Source: Chloroflexota bacterium
Lineage (GTDB): Bacteria; Chloroflexota; Limnocylindria; P2-11E
Assembly: GCA_016191385.1 (NCBI GenBank)
Contig: JACPOT010000013.1
Span: 1-34,726, forward strand
Length of the DNA stretch: 34,726 bases
Direction of reading: 5' to 3'
Shown here: in pieces, positions 12,215-20,095 of the stretch
Position numbering within the stretch: the stretch's first letter is position 1
Layout: the number at the start of each line of letters is the position of its first letter
The notes under the pieces: generated by a model
What the model was told of the DNA's origin: nothing
What the model saw: the letters and a program-made list of their open reading frames with translations, nothing else
The model's database searches: none
Made by a program: the position numbers and the translations under genes

Positions 12215-13702
12215 TTGCGTCGACGGCTACGCCGCGGAGCTCTGCTCATGGCTTTCGTCTTCGTCGTATCTGGCATACCCCTCGTTGCCGGGACCACCCC
12301 GGCCGCGGCGGATAGCCAGCCACCGACCCAGCCGACAGCGATACCCGCCTGTCCTGGTGACGGGACCGAAGGCGGCGGCGCGAACTTCCCGAACCGCGTT
12401 CGCCGCGATGCGACCGGTTGGCACAACTTCAACAACACCCACTGCAATGTCTGGAACAAGTGGTACGAGCAATACAGTGGTCAGTCACCGCTCTACGCCA
12501 AGCTCCCCTCGCTGGATGTTGACGAGATCTGGGTCGACCCCGAGGACGCCGGCTCCGCCGGTTCTGTGCCCGGCGGCGGCTCGCCGCACTGCTATCGCGT
12601 CTACGTGCACTACGTCGCCTACACCGCGGGGACCGCGGGGACGAACGGCACCGCGCCAGGATCGTTGCGCGTCGCCGTTGATCTGACGCAGGGCGGCGGC
12701 ACTTTCACGGATGCGCGGGGCGACGGCTTCTACCGCCGGCCTCTCGATAACGTCTCTTCTGGCTGGTACATGCTCTGGCGTCCCGCGCTGGTTGTCGGTG
12801 CCCTCGACGGAGCGCGCTACACCGAGCACGCCAGCGACAGCTCGGGCGGGATCGCGCTTCTGAGCGGCGGCTGGGGATCCGCTGCCTGGGGCGCGCGACT
12901 CACCGCCGCCGGCAAGCTTCCTGTCGGCGCCGCGTCGGTGGTCGTCCCGACGGCCGCGCAGGTCAACTACGGCGCCAACGGCGAAGCGCAGTCCCGCTAT
13001 GAGGGGTGCCGCACGCTTCGCTCGCCCGGTGTGCCCGTGGTCGTAACTGGCCTCGGCGTCACCGGTACCAGCGCCAACTCCGTTGATCTGTCCTGGCAAG
13101 CGCTGAGCGGTGCAAGTGCCTATCACCTGAAACGCGCCACGGCTGCGGGCGGTGCATATTCGGTCGTCGCTGATACGTCGACAACGACCGCCACCGACAC
13201 AACGGTGTCCGCAGGAACGACCTACTACTACATCTTACCGCCGAGCTCGCGGACGGTGAGACGGCGCCGTCCGCTGAGGTCGCCACGACGACGGGCGTGG
13301 CGGTCCCCGGGAACACCCTGGGCATCGATCCGGATGGGGCGTACTCGAAGGACCCGGTCAACCTGGCCACCGGCGTGTTCACGGCTCGCGCCGATGACTT
13401 GGCCATGCCGGGTCGGGTGCTCCCGCTCGCGTTCAGCCGTTGGTACAACTCCAGCGATACGACCCCCGGGCCTCTCGGCCCGGCCTGGACCCACTCGTAC
13501 AACTCGCAAGTCACCGATAGCGGCAGCTCCGTCGAGATCCGCGGAGGCACAGGCCGGCGCGATGTATTCACCCGCAGCCCGGACGGGACCTATGCGCCGC
13601 CGATCGGTGTCTTCGACACCCTGGTCAAGAACGCCGACTCGAGCTTCACGCTCATCCTTCGCGACCAGGTCAGGTACGAGTTCTCGACCACCGGATCACT
13701 GA
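12215..13702 (+). CDS. N-terminal part of a secreted RHS protein (signal peptide, unassigned domain, FN3 domain); authentic only to about 13234, then frameshifted
   Basis: Signal peptide LLMAFVFVVSGIPLVAGTTPAAA; FN3-like VTGLGVTGTSANSVDLSWQALSGASAYHLKRA...TTYYYI; continuation ILTAELADGETAPSAEVATTT lies in the frame of the next ORF. Confidence 0.75.
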   Translation: MRRRLRRGALLMAFVFVVSGIPLVAGTTPAAADSQPPTQPTAIPACPGDGTEGGGANFPNRVRRDATGWHNFNNTHCNVWNKWYEQYSGQSPLYAKLPSLDVDEIWVDPEDAGSAGSVPGGGSPHCYRVYVHYVAYTAGTAGTNGTAPGSLRVAVDLTQGGGTFTDARGDGFYRRPLDNVSSGWYMLWRPALVVGALDGARYTEHASDSSGGIALLSGGWGSAAWGARLTAAGKLPVGAASVVVPTAAQVNYGANGEAQSRYEGCRTLRSPGVPVVVTGLGVTGTSANSVDLSWQALSGASAYHLKRATAAGGAYSVVADTSTTTATDTTVSAGTTYYYILPPSSRTVRRRRPLRSPRRRAWRSPGTPWASIRMGRTRRTRSTWPPACSRLAPMTWPCRVGCSRSRSAVGTTPAIRPPGLSARPGPTRTTRKSPIAAAPSRSAEAQAGAMYSPAARTGPMRRRSVSSTPWSRTPTRASRSSFATRSGTSSRPPDH

Positions 13703-16700
13703 CGCGGATCCACGAGCCAGCGGGCAACCAGATCACCTTCGGATACGTCTCAGGCAACCTTTCGACGATCACCGACACCAGCGGACGGCAGACCGCACTG
13801 ACCTATGACACCGCGAGCCGGCTGATCCAGATCCAGGATCTCCTCGCGCGCCGCGTTAGCTATGCCTACGACGCGCAAGGGCGTCTCAGCACGGTCACCG
13901 ACCGGATCGGCAATCAGGCCGGCCAGGATCCGCTCCAGCACCGCTGGACCTATGCGTACGACGGTGGGACGCAGCGGATCACCACCATCACGGATCCAGA
14001 CGGACGCGTGATCGTCACCAACACCTATGACGGGCAGGGCCGGGTCACGCAGCAGCGCGACGGTCTCAGCGCGCTGACGCAGATCGCCTACGCCGGAAGT
14101 CAGACCACCGTGACCGATCCTCGCGGTCACCAGACCGTGTACGCGTTCGACAGCCGGATGCGCATCCTGGGTCAGACCGACACGGTCGGGTCGAACACCT
14201 ATGCGCTCAGCTACACCTACGACGCAGCCGGGCACCGCACAAGCGTCACCGACCGCAACGGCCAGCGCACCGACCTGACGTACGACGTCCGCGGGAATGT
14301 CTTGACCAAGACCGACCCGCAGCTCGATGCGCAGACGCCGCGCTTCGTCACTGAGTTCCAGTACGACGCGCGGAACAACCTGATCGAAGCGCTGGATGCC
14401 CGAGGGTTCCGAACGACCATGACCTACGACGCGACGACGGATCTGCTGATGCGTGTGGACCGGCAGATCGACGCGACGACCTGGGCCGTCACCCGCTACG
14501 AGTACGGCGACGCTGCCGATCCGGGGCTTCCGACCCGGATCATCAGCCCGCGCGGCAACATGGGCAGCCAGCCGGACCCTGCGTACTCGACAACGATGTC
14601 GTACGACAGCGCTGGAAACCTGATCGGCCGCACCGACGCGGACGGCGTGACCACGACGTTCGTCTACGACGCGGTCGGACGGCTCACCAGCCTTGTTGAC
14701 CCCGCCGGGAACGCGCCGGGCGGCATTCCGACGGAGCACACCTGGACCGTGAGCTATGACGCCAACGACCGGGAGCTGGGTCGCACTGATCCGCTGGGCC
14801 ACACGATCGGCTACGCCTACGACCGGACCGGCGACCGCACCAGCGTGACCGATCGGAACGGCAACGTCACCAGCTACACATTCGACGAGGACCGCCGGAT
14901 CGCGACCGTTGCCCAGCGGCCTGACCCCACTGGGCAACCCACGCTCGTCTACACCACGAGCGTGACCCGGGATGGGAACGGCAACGCCACGCGCATCACC
15001 CAAGCTAACGGCGCCATCACCGATTACAGCTATGACGCGGTCGACCGCCTCGTCGCCGTGACGACCCATCCGACCGCGCAGACGAACCTTGTGACCAGCT
15101 ACATCCTCGACGGCAACGGTCAGCCATTGAGCCGCACGACCGGCGACGGTGTGACCGTGAGCTATGCCTACGACGCCTTGACCCGCCTGCGGTCAGTGAG
15201 CGGTCCCTCGCTCTCGATCACCTACTCATACGACCAGGTCGGCCACCGCACCCAGATGGTCGATGCGACCGGCACGACGACGTATGCCTATGACGGCCTG
15301 GGGCGGGTCACCCAGACGGCGGCGCCGAACGGGATCCTCACGTACGGCTACGACCTCGACGGCAACCGCACCAGGCTCGGCTACCCGGGCGGCGACGATG
15401 TCGACTACTTCTTCACGCCAGCCGGCCGACTGACGCACGTGACCGACTGGGCCGGGAGACTGACCTCCTACACCTACGCATCCAGCGGCGCGGTCGAGTA
15501 TCTCGACTACGCCAACGGGATGAGTGCCACCTACGCGTACGACCGGGCCCAGCGACTGACGCGGCTCACGAACACGGTCGGCTCGACCATCATCAGTGAC
15601 CACGTCTACACGCTCGACCCCGAAGGGGATCGCACCGCCCTCGACGAATTCGTTCAGGGGATCACGCTTCCACCGGCGTGGACGTCGAGCGTCCGGGTGA
15701 ACGACGACACGGGTGGCGCAGTGCAAGAGAGCCCGGCATTGGCGCTGGGCCCCGACGACTCCGCCTATCTGGCGTGGCGCGACCTGCGCTCGGGGAACGG
15801 CGACGTGTACTTCTCGAGCCGGGCAGGCGGTACCGAGACGTGGTCTCCGAACGTCAAGGTCAGTTCAGACAGCGGCACTCGTAACCAGGGTCCGCCCTCG
15901 ATCGCGATCGATGGATCGAGCAAGGTCTACGCGGTATGGCAGGACGAGCGCGACAACGCCGTCGGCGCAACCGACTCCGTGTTAGCGAGCCAGCCGAGTA
16001 CGACGCTTCCATGCTGCGGTAGCTACTACGAGTTCCTCGGGATGACCGCGCCGTCCGTGCCGGACGGCTGGAACCTTGAGGAAGGTGACGGGCTCTATGT
16101 GCCGCCGGGCGTCTATTCATTCGACTTCCAGATCGACGTCTTCTACGACTACGGGCGCATCTACGGGACGACTCCGGAAGCCGAGGACTTTTACGTCACC
16201 GGAACGATAGACAGCCTCAGCGGAGCGCCGACCTTCTCCTGGCTCTGGGACAACTATGGGCGCTGGAGGTGGACGGGCACGTTCACCATCTCGGCTGACG
16301 AGGGGGAAGGATACTTCCGCCTCTACATCGAACAGCAAGATCCGGGCGACTCGGTCGACGGCTGGCGGGCCAGCGCGCAGATGACCGTGTCGCGCATCTC
16401 GGATCCCAACATCTACTTCGCAAAGCGAGATCCCGCGACAGGAACCTGGAGCGCCAACATTCGCGTGAATGACGACACGACGAGCGGGTTCGTCCAGCGG
16501 GAGCCGCGTATCTCTGTCCGGAGCGACGGCGGAGCAACTGCAGTGTGGGTCGACGGGCGTTCGACGGAGCGGAACATCTACGCCGCCCAGCTGATGCCGG
16601 GCGCGAACGCTTGGGGCACAAACAGGCGTGTCAGCGATGAAACGGCTTCGTGGAAGGTCGCTCCGGACGTTGCCTTTGCACCCGACGGAACGGCCTACGC

Positions 16701-18534
16701 GGTCTGGATGGACACGCGCAACGGTGTCTGGTACGACCTGTACTTCAGCTCGCTCGCCGTGGGCGCGCCCAATTGGAGCGCGAACACCAAGATCAATGAC
16801 ATCGGCGGCAGCGCCTACAGCCCACGGATCACGGTCGACGGCTCCGGCAATGTGATGGTCGCGTGGTTCGAGAACAACTCGTATCCCAAGCGGATCCGGG
16901 TGAGGCGCCTTGCGGCGGGCAGTTCGACATGGACAGCCGCGAGCACATCGATCACCGATGCGGCGAGTCGGCCATGCGCGTACGAAATGGGCCTGGCAAC
17001 TCGTAGCGACGGTCTTTCTCAAGCTGCGTGGCCAGACTGTCGTGAGAGTGGGATGTGGTGGGCCCGTTCTATCTACGGCTCGACATACGATCCGATCACC
17101 GGGACCTGGCTGCCGTCGTCAAGGCTGAGCGAAGGCCTTCCAGCCGGCGCTTTCTGGCGGAGCGCTCCCGCCGTGGCCTTCGGCGGCTCCGAGATCGGTG
17201 CTGCGTGGCGTGACGATGGGGCCGGGAACCCAGACGTTCGGAGCAGTCACCGGTCTGCTGCCCCGCAGGGCGTTGACCACTTCGCGTATTCATTCGACGG
17301 GTTGACCCGATTGACGGCGGTCTCCGGCCCCTTGCCCGAGACCTTCACCCTCGATGCTGCGACCAACATTGCGACCCGCACCGGCCCGACCGCGACCTAC
17401 AGCTACGACACCGCGAACCGGATGACCGGCGACGGCTCACGAACGTACACGTGGAACGCGGCCGACCGCTTAGTGCAGCGTGGTGCTGACACCTTCAGCT
17501 ACGACGCTCTGGCTCGATTGACGTCCTCGACCGTATCGGGTTCGACCCGCACGTTCTCCTACGACGGCGATGGCCTCCTCACCAGCGCGACTCAAGGAGC
17601 AACGGCCGCTTATCTGTGGGACAGCACGAGCACACCGGCGGTCCTGCTCAAGGCGGGGACGGACCGGATCGTCTGGGGCCTCGGACCGCTCTATGGAGTG
17701 CGCGGGGACGGGACGACTTACACATTCGCCCGCGACGCGCTCGGCAGCGTCCGTGCGGAAGTTAACGGCGCCGGTACGGCGCAGAAGACCTTCCTCTACT
17801 CCGCGTTCGGCGAGCCTCAAGGGGCTCCCGCTGGAAGCTCCCCGACGCTCTTCGGCTTCGTTGGCGAGCTGCGCGATGCGTCGGGCCTTATCTACCTGCG
17901 CGCGCGCTGGTACGACCCGGCCACAGGCCGCTTCATGAGCAGGGATCCCGTCCCAGGAGACGCGACGATCCCGGTCTCTCTGAACGGGTACGCCTATGGA
18001 TACGGTGATCCGACGCGGTTCACCGATCCCTCCGGTCGGTGTGGTGGCCCGTTGCTCGCAGTCTGTATCGGCGCGATTGTCGGCGGCATTACGGGCGCTG
18101 CCGGAGCCGTGGCTCAGGGTGGATCGCTGGAGCAGGTCGCGGCGGCGACGGCCGTCGGAGCCCTCGGCGGCGCAGCAGTTGGCTACGGCGCGACGAGCGT
18201 GTGGGCTGGGGCCTTGATCGGTGCGGGGTCCGACCTCGTGGGTCAGATAATCACGACACGGGACTTCGGACGGGTGAACTGGGGGTCGGTCGCCGGCGCA
18301 GCGGCTGGCGGCGCGCTCGCGGCCTATGGGGGTCGGGAGACCCTTCGCGTGTTTGTTCAGGCCGACCGCGTGACGAGAGAGGCGGCAGCAGCCTTGATCG
18401 GGGTAGGCCCTTCGGCCGGACTGCCTCTCGTCCTCGGAGCGATCTGGGACGCTCTTCGTCGGGACTCGGGCGATCGCGGATTCATAGTCCCGCGCACTGG
18501 CGAAGGGCTCGATTATGCGGGAGCCGGCAAGTAG
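13297..18534 (+). CDS. RHS/YD-repeat protein, main body (DUF6531-like start, YD repeats, inserted repeat/propeller-like domain, RHS core, glycine-zipper C-terminus)
   Basis: DPVNLATGVFTARADDLAMPGRVLPLAFSRWYNS; many YDxxGxxT/S repeats; core LIYLRARWYDPATGRFMSRDP; annotated start is probably internal to the gene starting at 12215. Confidence 0.92.
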   Translation: MAVPGNTLGIDPDGAYSKDPVNLATGVFTARADDLAMPGRVLPLAFSRWYNSSDTTPGPLGPAWTHSYNSQVTDSGSSVEIRGGTGRRDVFTRSPDGTYAPPIGVFDTLVKNADSSFTLILRDQVRYEFSTTGSLTRIHEPAGNQITFGYVSGNLSTITDTSGRQTALTYDTASRLIQIQDLLARRVSYAYDAQGRLSTVTDRIGNQAGQDPLQHRWTYAYDGGTQRITTITDPDGRVIVTNTYDGQGRVTQQRDGLSALTQIAYAGSQTTVTDPRGHQTVYAFDSRMRILGQTDTVGSNTYALSYTYDAAGHRTSVTDRNGQRTDLTYDVRGNVLTKTDPQLDAQTPRFVTEFQYDARNNLIEALDARGFRTTMTYDATTDLLMRVDRQIDATTWAVTRYEYGDAADPGLPTRIISPRGNMGSQPDPAYSTTMSYDSAGNLIGRTDADGVTTTFVYDAVGRLTSLVDPAGNAPGGIPTEHTWTVSYDANDRELGRTDPLGHTIGYAYDRTGDRTSVTDRNGNVTSYTFDEDRRIATVAQRPDPTGQPTLVYTTSVTRDGNGNATRITQANGAITDYSYDAVDRLVAVTTHPTAQTNLVTSYILDGNGQPLSRTTGDGVTVSYAYDALTRLRSVSGPSLSITYSYDQVGHRTQMVDATGTTTYAYDGLGRVTQTAAPNGILTYGYDLDGNRTRLGYPGGDDVDYFFTPAGRLTHVTDWAGRLTSYTYASSGAVEYLDYANGMSATYAYDRAQRLTRLTNTVGSTIISDHVYTLDPEGDRTALDEFVQGITLPPAWTSSVRVNDDTGGAVQESPALALGPDDSAYLAWRDLRSGNGDVYFSSRAGGTETWSPNVKVSSDSGTRNQGPPSIAIDGSSKVYAVWQDERDNAVGATDSVLASQPSTTLPCCGSYYEFLGMTAPSVPDGWNLEEGDGLYVPPGVYSFDFQIDVFYDYGRIYGTTPEAEDFYVTGTIDSLSGAPTFSWLWDNYGRWRWTGTFTISADEGEGYFRLYIEQQDPGDSVDGWRASAQMTVSRISDPNIYFAKRDPATGTWSANIRVNDDTTSGFVQREPRISVRSDGGATAVWVDGRSTERNIYAAQLMPGANAWGTNRRVSDETASWKVAPDVAFAPDGTAYAVWMDTRNGVWYDLYFSSLAVGAPNWSANTKINDIGGSAYSPRITVDGSGNVMVAWFENNSYPKRIRVRRLAAGSSTWTAASTSITDAASRPCAYEMGLATRSDGLSQAAWPDCRESGMWWARSIYGSTYDPITGTWLPSSRLSEGLPAGAFWRSAPAVAFGGSEIGAAWRDDGAGNPDVRSSHRSAAPQGVDHFAYSFDGLTRLTAVSGPLPETFTLDAATNIATRTGPTATYSYDTANRMTGDGSRTYTWNAADRLVQRGADTFSYDALARLTSSTVSGSTRTFSYDGDGLLTSATQGATAAYLWDSTSTPAVLLKAGTDRIVWGLGPLYGVRGDGTTYTFARDALGSVRAEVNGAGTAQKTFLYSAFGEPQGAPAGSSPTLFGFVGELRDASGLIYLRARWYDPATGRFMSRDPVPGDATIPVSLNGYAYGYGDPTRFTDPSGRCGGPLLAVCIGAIVGGITGAAGAVAQGGSLEQVAAATAVGALGGAAVGYGATSVWAGALIGAGSDLVGQIITTRDFGRVNWGSVAGAAAGGALAAYGGRETLRVFVQADRVTREAAAALIGVGPSAGLPLVLGAIWDALRRDSGDRGFIVPRTGEGLDYAGAGK
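15655..17270 (+). other. Inserted Trp/Asp-rich repeat (beta-propeller-like) domain inside the YD-repeat barrel
   Basis: Repeated blocks VRVNDDTGG..ESPALALGPDDSAYLAWRDLRSGNGDVYFSSR / VKVSSDSG..PSIAIDGSSKVYAVWQDERDN / NIRVNDDT..EPRISVRSDGGATAVWVDGRSTERNIYAAQ / RVSDETA..APDVAFAPDGTAYAVWMDTRNGVWYDLYFSS / TKINDIGG..SPRITVDGSGNVMVAWFEN; YD repeats resume at DHFAYSFDGLTRLTAVSG. Confidence 0.75.
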
Positions 18535-18991
18535 GCTGATCTCGCCTGACTCGACCACCTTTGCCGAGAGACGCGTGCATCGGCTCCTGCGTCTTGGCAC
18601 GCCGTTGGGCGTCTTCTGGTTTGCGGCACTGCCAGTCCTACTCGCTGAGGTCAACCTTCAGGGCACGCTGTTCGTGATGGTGCTGTGCCTTATCAGCGGA
18701 CTGACCGGGGGCGTCGCGCTTTCGACCGCGCACGCGATCGAGGTCGTCTCGCAGGGTCTTCGGGTGCGCCAGCTGGTCCGAAGCCGCACGGTGACGTGGT
18801 CGGACATTGTTCTGGTGGAGAAGGCGGGCGCTTACCAGAACTCGGTCGTCCGGGTGGTCACCCGTGCAGGCGACTTTCTCGTTTTCAGATCGATCTCCGA
18901 CTTCGACCGGTTGATTCTCGTGCTGGAGCTGAGATCTCCGGTCGCGTTGAGCCGCATGCCGACCTGGCGCCGCCTACTTGTCCTGAAGTAG
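18515..18991 (+). CDS. Small membrane protein (two predicted TM helices followed by a PH-like soluble region); candidate immunity/partner of the RHS protein
   Basis: 158 aa; starts 20 nt inside the RHS 3' end; hydrophobic LGVFWFAALPVLLAEVNLQGTLFVMVLCLISGLTGGVAL then IEVVSQGLRVRQLVRSRTVTWSDIVLVEKAGAYQNSVVRVVTRAGDFLVFRSISDFDRLILVLE. Confidence 0.65.
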   Translation: MREPASRLISPDSTTFAERRVHRLLRLGTPLGVFWFAALPVLLAEVNLQGTLFVMVLCLISGLTGGVALSTAHAIEVVSQGLRVRQLVRSRTVTWSDIVLVEKAGAYQNSVVRVVTRAGDFLVFRSISDFDRLILVLELRSPVALSRMPTWRRLLVLK

Positions 18992-19049: not shown

Positions 19050-19736
19050 GTGGACGTGCAGGTGAGATCAATCCGGGGTGCCTTCCTCGGAGCCTCCTTT
19101 GCGTGCCTCGTCCTCGGTTGGGCCGCGTCGGAGACTAACGAGCACTACCGCCAGCGCGACTTCTTCTGTCTCTGGCAAGGTGCCCGGATCACAGCTGGCG
19201 GTGGCGACCCATATGACGAGACGGCATGGCGCGCGGAGACCTCCCAGCGAGAGCAGGACCTCGGCGCACCGGCGGGGTTCGCGTGCCCGCGCCGCTACTC
19301 ATATCCGCTCTGGACCGCGGTACTGATGCGTCCGTTCGGAGTGGTCCCGCTCGCCCTTGCCAGTAGCGCGTGGATGGCCCTCGCATTCACCTCGACGCTC
19401 GCCGGCATCGCCCTGTTGTGGACTGCGGTCGGCGGTCAAGCGCGCTTTGCCGGTGTGTTCGCCGCCATCGTGCTCACCTCGCAGCCGTTCTGGGTGCTCG
19501 TGGTCGGCGGCCAGGTCTCCGGCGTCCTCCTGGCTCTTGTAGGCCTCGGGGTCTGGTCTCTTTCACGTCAGCGTGAGGGCCTCGGTGCGGCGGCGCTGAC
19601 GGCTCTTCTGATCAAGCCGCAGGTCGCGGGGATCTTCGTTCCGGCCGTCGTCCTCCACCGGCTCATCGCTCAACGCCCGGGAGTCGTGGCCAGCTCCGCG
19701 GTGGTCGCACTGGTCCTGCTCGCCATGCGCTCGTGA
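19050..19736 (+). CDS. GT87/DUF2029-like membrane glycosyltransferase, N-terminal fragment
   Basis: YRQRDFFCLWQGARITAGGGDPYD..YSYPLWTAVLMRPFG..PFWVLVVGGQVSGVLLALVGLGVWSL..LLIKPQVAGIF; resembles the intact paralog at 28607-29740 but stops early. Confidence 0.7.
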   Translation: MDVQVRSIRGAFLGASFACLVLGWAASETNEHYRQRDFFCLWQGARITAGGGDPYDETAWRAETSQREQDLGAPAGFACPRRYSYPLWTAVLMRPFGVVPLALASSAWMALAFTSTLAGIALLWTAVGGQARFAGVFAAIVLTSQPFWVLVVGGQVSGVLLALVGLGVWSLSRQREGLGAAALTALLIKPQVAGIFVPAVVLHRLIAQRPGVVASSAVVALVLLAMRS

Positions 19737-20095
19737 CGGTGGCCGTGCTCCGGCGCGACCCCGGTCCGGTGCGCTTCGCAGCCCTGGCGCTCCCTTTCTC
19801 GCTCCTTCTGATGCCGTACATGTGGAGCTACGACTTTCTGGTCCTGGCATTTCCGTGGGCGGTCACCCTCGCGGCCGCACAGCAGGCCTCAGCGCCGTCG
19901 CGACCGCTGATCCTGTTCGGGCTCGCCGTCGTCGCGAGCGTATTGCCCTGGTCCCTCTACGCGGTCGGTCTCGAGCGAGGACAGGAGACCCTGAGCGCGC
20001 TCATTCCGGCTGCGACCGCGATCCTGGCCGCTATCGCGCTGAGGCGAGCAATGGACCCCAGTCAGGTCACGCGAACTGCCGCGCACGTGCGTTAG
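19733..20095 (+). CDS. GT87/DUF2029-like C-terminal fragment
   Basis: LALPFSLLLMPYMWSYDFLVLAFPWAVTLAA aligns by eye with LLLPLGALVVPYFQSYDHLLLALPWAYIA of the paralog; different phase from the upstream fragment, GTGA overlap. Confidence 0.65.
   Translation: MTVAVLRRDPGPVRFAALALPFSLLLMPYMWSYDFLVLAFPWAVTLAAAQQASAPSRPLILFGLAVVASVLPWSLYAVGLERGQETLSALIPAATAILAAIALRRAMDPSQVTRTAAHVR

What the first reader, a model, noticed from the sequence alone, without database searches (positions are those of the whole stretch)
12215..18991. Candidate polymorphic-toxin-like locus: secreted RHS protein with an uncharacterised C-terminus and an overlapping membrane-protein ORF
The RHS core (LIYLRARWYDPATGRFMSRDP, about 17890-17950) is followed by ~170 aa (SGRCGGPLLAVC...DYAGAGK) dominated by glycine-zipper segments (GAIVGGITGAAGAVAQGG, AVGALGGAAVGYG, AGAAAGGALAAYGG). 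I recognise no nuclease, deaminase or ADP-ribosylation motif. The next ORF (18515-18991) begins 20 nt before the RHS stop and encodes two TM helices plus a PH-like soluble part. RHS/CdiA-type toxins are usually followed by immunity genes, and a membrane immunity protein would suit a membrane-targeting toxin. The toxin/immunity pairing is inference.
Basis: partly seen in the sequence, partly recalled or inferred. Interest (0 to 1): 0.78.

Follow-up and report, generated by a model that had tools for sequence, protein, structure and literature searches.

The report
Chloroflexota RHS toxin with membrane-type tip
An uncultured Chloroflexota bacterium carries a large RHS protein, of the kind bacteria use to poison rivals, whose swappable end is unusually hydrophobic and is followed by an overlapping gene for a small membrane protein that probably protects the producer; the kind of system is known, but this toxin end and this protector match nothing described.

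Summary
The observation mostly holds. The RHS ORF (13297-18534) ends in a 165-aa tip (18037-18531) with no known domain. A 158-aa ORF (18515-18991) overlaps its stop by 20 nt and has two predicted TM helices plus a marginal bacterial PH domain. Two corrections: the secretion part (12215 to ~13234) lies in another frame, and the 'glycine zippers' do not exceed what the tip's 42% Gly+Ala composition gives.

The RHS family is polymorphic. The two closest cores (56-57% identical) carry other tips, one a colicin-E5 RNase, each with a different next ORF. The first ~50-100 residues of the tip match a module in six other tips and in one longer, soluble-ended tip, so they are probably a shared entry segment. 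The last ~65 residues and the 158-aa protein have no detectable relatives.

Across 43 independent RHS loci, a hydrophobic tip end predicts a polytopic membrane protein in the next ORF (12/15 versus 9/28, OR 8.4, p=0.003). The next-but-one gene shows no such link, though only 16 pairs could be tested.

Best reading: a membrane-acting RHS effector with its membrane immunity protein, working like Tse5/Tsi5 or CDI ionophores. Pairing ~0.65 likely, membrane action ~0.5. No toxicity was tested. New member of a known kind.

The parts
12215..13234 (+). N-terminal part with Sec-type signal peptide (LRRRLRRGALLMAFVFVVSGIPLVAGTTPAAADS) and the start of an FN3-like stretch; frame 2, TTG start
   Evidence: translation; no Pfam hit for this fragment alone
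13225..13300 (+). frame change: FN3-like text runs from frame 2 (..GTTYYYI) into frame 1 (LTAELADGETAPSAEV..); frameshift mutation or assembly error
13297..18534 (+). RHS ORF, 1745 aa, open in frame 1 (GTG is the first start codon in that frame, not necessarily the real start)
   Evidence: DUF6531, 18 RHS repeats, YD repeats
13351..13569 (+). DUF6531 domain (RHS shell N-terminal)
   Evidence: Pfam PF20148, 68 bits
15679..17256 (+). ~525-aa insertion within the RHS repeats, BNR/sialidase-like (PDIAV_lipo sub-threshold match)
   Evidence: NF053835 51 bits, cut-off 90; also in G009 and G006 RHS; absent from own-genome paralog on C45
17797..18036 (+). RHS repeat-associated core, ends DPSG
   Evidence: TIGR03696, 63 bits, cut-off 32.5
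18037..18351 (+). tip residues 1-105: glycine/alanine-rich hydrophobic module (RCGGPLLAVCIGAIVGG..), probable entry/membrane-insertion segment; statistically shared part is residues 1-~100
   Evidence: profile matches limited to this part; helices 1-2 are the only parts of the AF2 model with pLDDT above 70
18352..18531 (+). tip residues 106-165: variable end with one hydrophobic helix, no relatives; candidate toxic part or part of a helical bundle
   Evidence: no homologue; hydropathy 1.8
18502..18507 (+). GAAGGG, ribosome-binding-site-like, 7 nt before the ATG of the small ORF, inside the RHS coding region
   Evidence: sequence
18515..18991 (+). 158-aa candidate membrane immunity protein: two TM helices then a bacterial PH (bPH_6) domain; overlaps RHS stop by 20 nt
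   Evidence: (helix-helix-beta in a low-confidence model)

Best explanation
This is a polymorphic RHS toxin locus of an uncultured Chloroflexota bacterium. The RHS shell, exported by a Sec signal peptide, would carry and release its C-terminal tip at a competing cell. The tip's first ~100 residues, a Gly/Ala-rich hydrophobic module shared with other RHS tips, would insert into or help cross the target membrane. The variable end (~65 residues, one hydrophobic helix), probably together with that module, would disturb the membrane (depolarisation or a small pore). The overlapping downstream gene makes a two-TM + PH-domain protein that would sit in the producer's membrane, bind the tip and prevent self-poisoning. 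Shown here: gene order, overlap, tip swapping, the module's distribution, and the statistical link between hydrophobic tip ends and membrane-protein neighbours. Inferred: export, toxicity, membrane action and immunity.
For: Closest RHS cores carry swapped tips: Colicin_E5 in G006 (40.4 bits, cut-off 25), a related glycine-rich tip in G009, another tip in G015. Each is followed by a different ORF. Seven tips share the module (window, G009, G034, G038, G121, G147 and G145), and all seven loci have an overlapping or abutting membrane ORF. In 43 non-redundant GC-rich RHS loci, a hydrophobic last 110 aa goes with >=2 TM in the next ORF: 12/15 against 9/28, OR 8.4, p=0.0033; next-but-one gene OR 0.8 (n=16), whole-tip hydrophobicity OR 1.7, p=0.3. 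A looser set of 75 pairs gives OR 4.8-10, p 4e-5 to 2e-3 over the cut-offs tried. G038 has a displaced second tip carrying the end of the core. AF2 draws five helices for the tip, as CDI ionophores have, at low confidence. Precedents: Tse5/Tsi5 (PMC9637101), EsxX (PMC12744356), CDI ionophores (PMC11630599).
Against: The window tip's link to the family is marginal: leave-one-out score 4.5 bits, reached by 1 of 500 locally shuffled copies, and confined to the first ~100 residues. The end of the tip and the 158-aa protein have no homologues, so cognate co-variation cannot be shown. Membrane next ORFs are common after all tips in the set (about half of the 47 pairs), so 7 of 7 is only moderately unlikely (about 0.02 by my estimate). 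The partner proteins are not one family: only the G121 and G147 ones are convincingly related. AF2 models are poor (pLDDT 56 and 46) and no fold matched. The RHS reading frame is broken in this assembly.
Confidence: 0.5

Rival explanations
1. The glycine-rich module is only a translocation or linker segment, and the toxin is the last ~65 residues acting inside the cell or at the wall by an unknown, non-membrane mechanism; the membrane protein blocks entry or binds that toxin.
For: The same N-terminal module (first 52 residues, 18 bits) begins the 296-aa tip L124, which ends in a soluble region and is followed by a soluble next ORF. A glycine zipper in Tde1 serves translocation, not killing (PMC10240207). 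Zhang et al. 2012 suggest two-TM immunity proteins may act by blocking uptake (PMC3482391).
Against: The last 65 residues contain a strongly hydrophobic helix (19-residue mean 1.8) and no motif of any catalytic toxin family. Hydrophobic ends in general go with membrane partners.
Confidence: 0.25
2. The tip is not toxic: it is a membrane anchor or a decayed, toxin-less end of an RHS surface protein, and the downstream gene is an unrelated or anchoring membrane protein.
For: No toxin domain. The RHS reading frame is broken at ~13234. A 2TM + bPH protein occurs elsewhere without RHS (G018, L194). Membrane next ORFs are common in this set.
Against: The tip frame is the only frame free of stops with sensible composition and runs into a gene overlap with a ribosome-site-like sequence. 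Sister loci carry a real nuclease tip at the same place. Related hydrophobic tips keep a tightly packed membrane partner.
Confidence: 0.2
3. Artefact: the 158-aa ORF is a chance ORF in 71% GC DNA.
For: About 12% of simulated regions give an ORF this long starting in a 110-nt stretch.
Against: Codon-position GC of 0.65/0.46/0.79 is coding-like, it matches bPH_6 above the curated cut-off, and it has a two-TM plus PH layout.
Confidence: 0.05

Closest known systems
Tse5 (RhsP1)/Tsi5 of Pseudomonas aeruginosa (PMC9637101)
   Same: RHS shell with a C-terminal tip of no predicted enzymatic function and putative TM and amphipathic helices; adjacent immunity protein with two TM helices
   Different: Tse5 is a T6SS effector with a PAAR-like N-terminus; here a Sec signal peptide, an FN3-like stretch and a BNR-like insertion. 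Tsi5 is described with two TM regions; the protein here adds a PH domain. No sequence comparison was made; pore formation is untested here
CDI ionophore toxins with two-helix CdiI proteins (PMC11630599)
   Same: Entry module followed by a helical, membrane-acting domain (five-helix bundle) with a putative glycine zipper; highly polymorphic hydrophobic immunity proteins encoded next to the toxin
   Different: CdiA two-partner secretion in proteobacteria, 72-100-aa immunity hairpins; here an RHS shell in Chloroflexota and 158 aa with a PH domain; five helices only in a low-confidence model
EsxX / TelE LXG toxins with ExiCD (PMC12744356)
   Same: Glycine-zipper membrane-depolarising C-terminus; polytopic membrane proteins give immunity
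   Different: T7SS/LXG delivery in Gram-positives; several immunity proteins per toxin; no RHS
Tde1 glycine-zipper translocation segment (PMC10240207)
   Same: Glycine-rich hydrophobic segment N-terminal to a toxin region
   Different: There the segment delivers a DNase domain; here no catalytic domain follows

Membership tests
RHS polymorphic toxins | RHS/YD repeats ending in a conserved RHS core | tested here: met
   PF05593 x18, PF20148, TIGR03696 above cut-offs
RHS polymorphic toxins | C-terminal tip variable between close relatives behind a conserved core | tested here: met
   Cores 51-57% identical (G006, G009, G015) carry unlike tips; Colicin_E5 in G006
RHS polymorphic toxins | Tip has a toxic activity | not testable with these tools
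   No recognised toxin domain; needs an assay
RHS polymorphic toxins | Cognate immunity gene directly downstream, changing with the tip | tested here: inconclusive
   Next ORF changes with the tip across loci and overlaps here; no relative of this exact pair exists to test co-variation
Pore-forming/ionophore RHS or CDI tips (Tse5, CDI ionophores) | Tip predicted to be helical and membrane-inserting | tested here: inconclusive
   Hydropathy gives two TM-like stretches; AF2 draws five helices with mean pLDDT 56
Pore-forming/ionophore RHS or CDI tips (Tse5, CDI ionophores) | Sequence or fold homology to a known ionophore | tested here: not met
   No Pfam, PDB-sequence or PDB-fold match; a direct comparison with Tse5 or CDI ionophore sequences was not made
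Pore-forming/ionophore RHS or CDI tips (Tse5, CDI ionophores) | Membrane-embedded immunity protein | tested here: inconclusive
   Two TM helices predicted in the adjacent 158-aa protein; immunity function itself untested
bPH_6 (PF10756) | Match above the curated cut-off | tested here: met
   22.2 bits against 22, residues 76-125 only
Glycine zipper proteins | GxxxG repeats beyond what composition gives | tested here: not met
   8 observed, 7.1 expected, p=0.4; triplets 11 against 6.5, p=0.07

The most novel reading that the evidence does not exclude
Uncultured Chloroflexota keep a large arsenal of RHS tips that kill by acting on membranes rather than by enzymes. A shared Gly/Ala-rich entry module is joined to ever-changing short hydrophobic ends, each neutralised by a different membrane protein. 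In this locus the neutraliser is a new kind, a two-TM protein with a PH domain.
Probability: 0.25. Interest if true: 0.55.

Novelty: new member of a known kind. Interest (0 to 1): 0.36.

Why it matters
If right, it adds a toxin/immunity pair with no sequence relatives, and a PH-domain membrane protein as a possible immunity type, from a phylum where, as far as I know, competition between bacteria is little studied. It also gives a simple, testable rule from comparative data: when the last ~100 residues of an RHS tip are hydrophobic, the neighbouring gene tends to encode a polytopic membrane protein. That rule would help pick membrane-acting tips out of the many 'unknown' RHS ends.

Tried and rejected
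Homologue searches for the 158-aa protein: 61 relatives, 177 class genomes, one genome-contig scan, PDB sequences. Nothing beyond noise; the best class hit was E=0.02, and the PDB hits are designed helical repeats matching its hydrophobic helices. Tip in 177 class genomes, viral contigs and PDB: nothing useful. AF2 of tip and of the 158-aa protein: low confidence, no fold match. First automated next-ORF picks were noisy in high-GC DNA (for example L056 was given a wrong 84-aa ORF), so a GC3-based rule was used and key loci were read by hand. I first took the seven tips as one homologous family; leave-one-out tests showed that for the window this holds only for the first ~100 residues, and that most partners are not demonstrably one family. 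Whole-tip hydrophobicity does not significantly predict the partner type, so the idea that zippers alone mark membrane toxins was dropped. bPH_6 proteins in relatives do not lie beside RHS genes in the ~1.5 kb flanks seen.
Full report
Setting. The window is the whole of contig C17 of a 1.42-Mb, 70% complete metagenome-assembled genome. Its DXS protein is 69-73% identical to the nearest Chloroflexi MAGs and ~55% or less to anything else, so the organism is an uncultured member of Chloroflexota. The neighbouring genes are ordinary: DXS, SDR, a flavoprotein with a cNMP-binding domain, GT87 glycosyltransferases, CcmF.

Anatomy. The RHS ORF is 13297-18534 in frame 1. It has DUF6531, 18 RHS repeats and a C-terminal RHS core. 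The signal-peptide-bearing N-terminus is open from 12215 in frame 2, and an FN3-like sequence passes from frame 2 to frame 1 near 13234. Between RHS repeats lies a ~525-aa insertion (15679-17256) resembling BNR/sialidase-type repeats. It is present in the closest RHS relatives (G006, G009) and absent from a second RHS gene of the same genome.

The tip. After DPSG come 165 residues, 42% Gly+Ala, with no family match. GxxxG pairs are no more frequent than in shuffled copies, so 'glycine zipper' describes composition more than a proven motif. Hydropathy gives TM-like stretches, one of them in the last 60 residues. AF2 on a 7-sequence alignment draws five helices but is confident only for the first two. 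No solved structure matches.

The small ORF. 18515-18991 overlaps the RHS stop by 20 nt, has a GAAGGG 7 nt upstream and coding-like GC by codon position. Two hydrophobic helices are followed by a bPH_6 domain match just over the curated cut-off. It has no relative in 177 class genomes or elsewhere searched. A protein of similar layout exists in a relative without a nearby RHS gene (G018) but is not detectably homologous.

Is it a polymorphic toxin locus? RHS cores occur in 53 of 177 class genomes. The nearest cores carry other tips. G006 (56%) has a Colicin_E5 RNase tip above the Pfam cut-off with a soluble next ORF. G009 (57%) has a Gly/Ala-rich tip followed, with a GTGA overlap, by a hydrophobic 119-aa ORF. 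G015 has yet another. In G038 a second, displaced tip module follows, carrying the same end-of-core sequence NNPGLLTDPSG and now apparently frame-broken. This is the usual anatomy of tip exchange in RHS systems (established knowledge of the family).

Relatives of the tip. A profile of six tips finds only 7 of 177 class genomes and 4 of 400 phylum genomes. All seven loci, the window included, have an overlapping or abutting membrane ORF. Leave-one-out tests show that five of the tips are clearly related, while the window and G009 tips are marginal (4.5 and 6.0 bits, reached by about 1 in 500 shuffles). For the window the similarity sits in the first ~100 residues; residues 61-165 match nothing on their own. 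The same front module also begins a 296-aa tip (L124) with a soluble end and a soluble next ORF. So I read the front as an entry or membrane-insertion module and the back as the variable effector end. The membrane partners are mostly not one family; only those of G121 and G147 are convincingly related.

I collected 156 unique RHS tips from the class and phylum and asked whether hydrophobic tips have membrane-protein neighbours. With the next ORF chosen by codon-position GC (blind to hydropathy) in GC-rich loci and one tip per cluster (n=43), a TM-like stretch in the last 110 residues goes with >=2 TM helices in the next ORF in 12 of 15 cases, against 9 of 28 without (OR 8.4, one-sided p=0.0033). 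Windows of 70 and 130 residues give OR 15.8 and 7.3. The next-but-one gene shows nothing (OR 0.8, n=16), and whole-tip hydrophobicity shows nothing significant (OR 1.7, p=0.3). A looser set of 75 pairs gives OR 4.8-10.4, p 4e-5 to 2e-3. Several cut-offs were tried and all are shown in those calls. The whole-tip test on the first, looser set was weak (OR 1.8-2.3, p 0.07-0.14), and restricting to the tip's end was a second step taken after seeing that result, so the p-values are optimistic. The window itself is one of the 12.

Mechanism. Tse5, whose immunity protein Tsi5 has two predicted TM regions, forms pores and depolarises cells (PMC9637101). CDI ionophores have an entry domain, a five-helix bundle and two-helix membrane immunity proteins that diverge fast (PMC11630599). 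EsxX is a glycine-zipper depolarising toxin with polytopic membrane immunity proteins (PMC12744356). By analogy I favour a membrane-acting tip with a membrane immunity protein. The chief rival, based on Tde1 (PMC10240207) and on the modular front part, is that the glycine-rich segment only helps entry and the last 65 residues do something else.

Verdict. Polymorphic RHS locus: about 0.9. Tip and 158-aa protein are a toxin/immunity pair: about 0.65. Membrane action: about 0.5. It is a new member of a known kind, with an unusual PH-domain partner. All functional steps are inferred.

Noticed in passing
window 13225-13300: Frame change inside an FN3-like stretch separates the signal-peptide part (frame 2) from the RHS ORF (frame 1): frameshift or assembly error.
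   Followed up: partly
window 15679-17256: About 525-aa BNR/sialidase-like insertion inside the RHS repeats, shared with G006 and G009 RHS proteins and absent from the own-genome RHS paralog on contig C45.
   Followed up: partly
window 19050-20095: A GT87-like gene directly downstream is split over two frames (19050-19736 and 19733-20095), another possible frameshift in this contig.
   Followed up: no
L190:4349-4906 (-), genome G038: Displaced second RHS tip module carrying the end-of-core sequence NNPGLLTDPSG downstream of an intact RHS gene, apparently frame-broken: a decaying orphan tip.
   Followed up: partly
L122 and L123 (G309:C2:288900-328700): Tandem array of at least ten RHS cores within ~33 kb with many different tips: a large tip arsenal in another Chloroflexota lineage.
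   Followed up: no
L060 (-) tip, G028:C122: 64-aa Cys-rich, very hydrophobic RHS tip (YCYWACFWVCAVVVIIACTV...), followed 149 nt later by a 3-TM ORF.
   Followed up: no
L189:3031-3753 (-), G145: 241-aa partner of a glycine-rich RHS tip with a soluble N-terminal part followed by three hydrophobic helices, ATG overlapping the RHS stop (P0006).
   Followed up: partly
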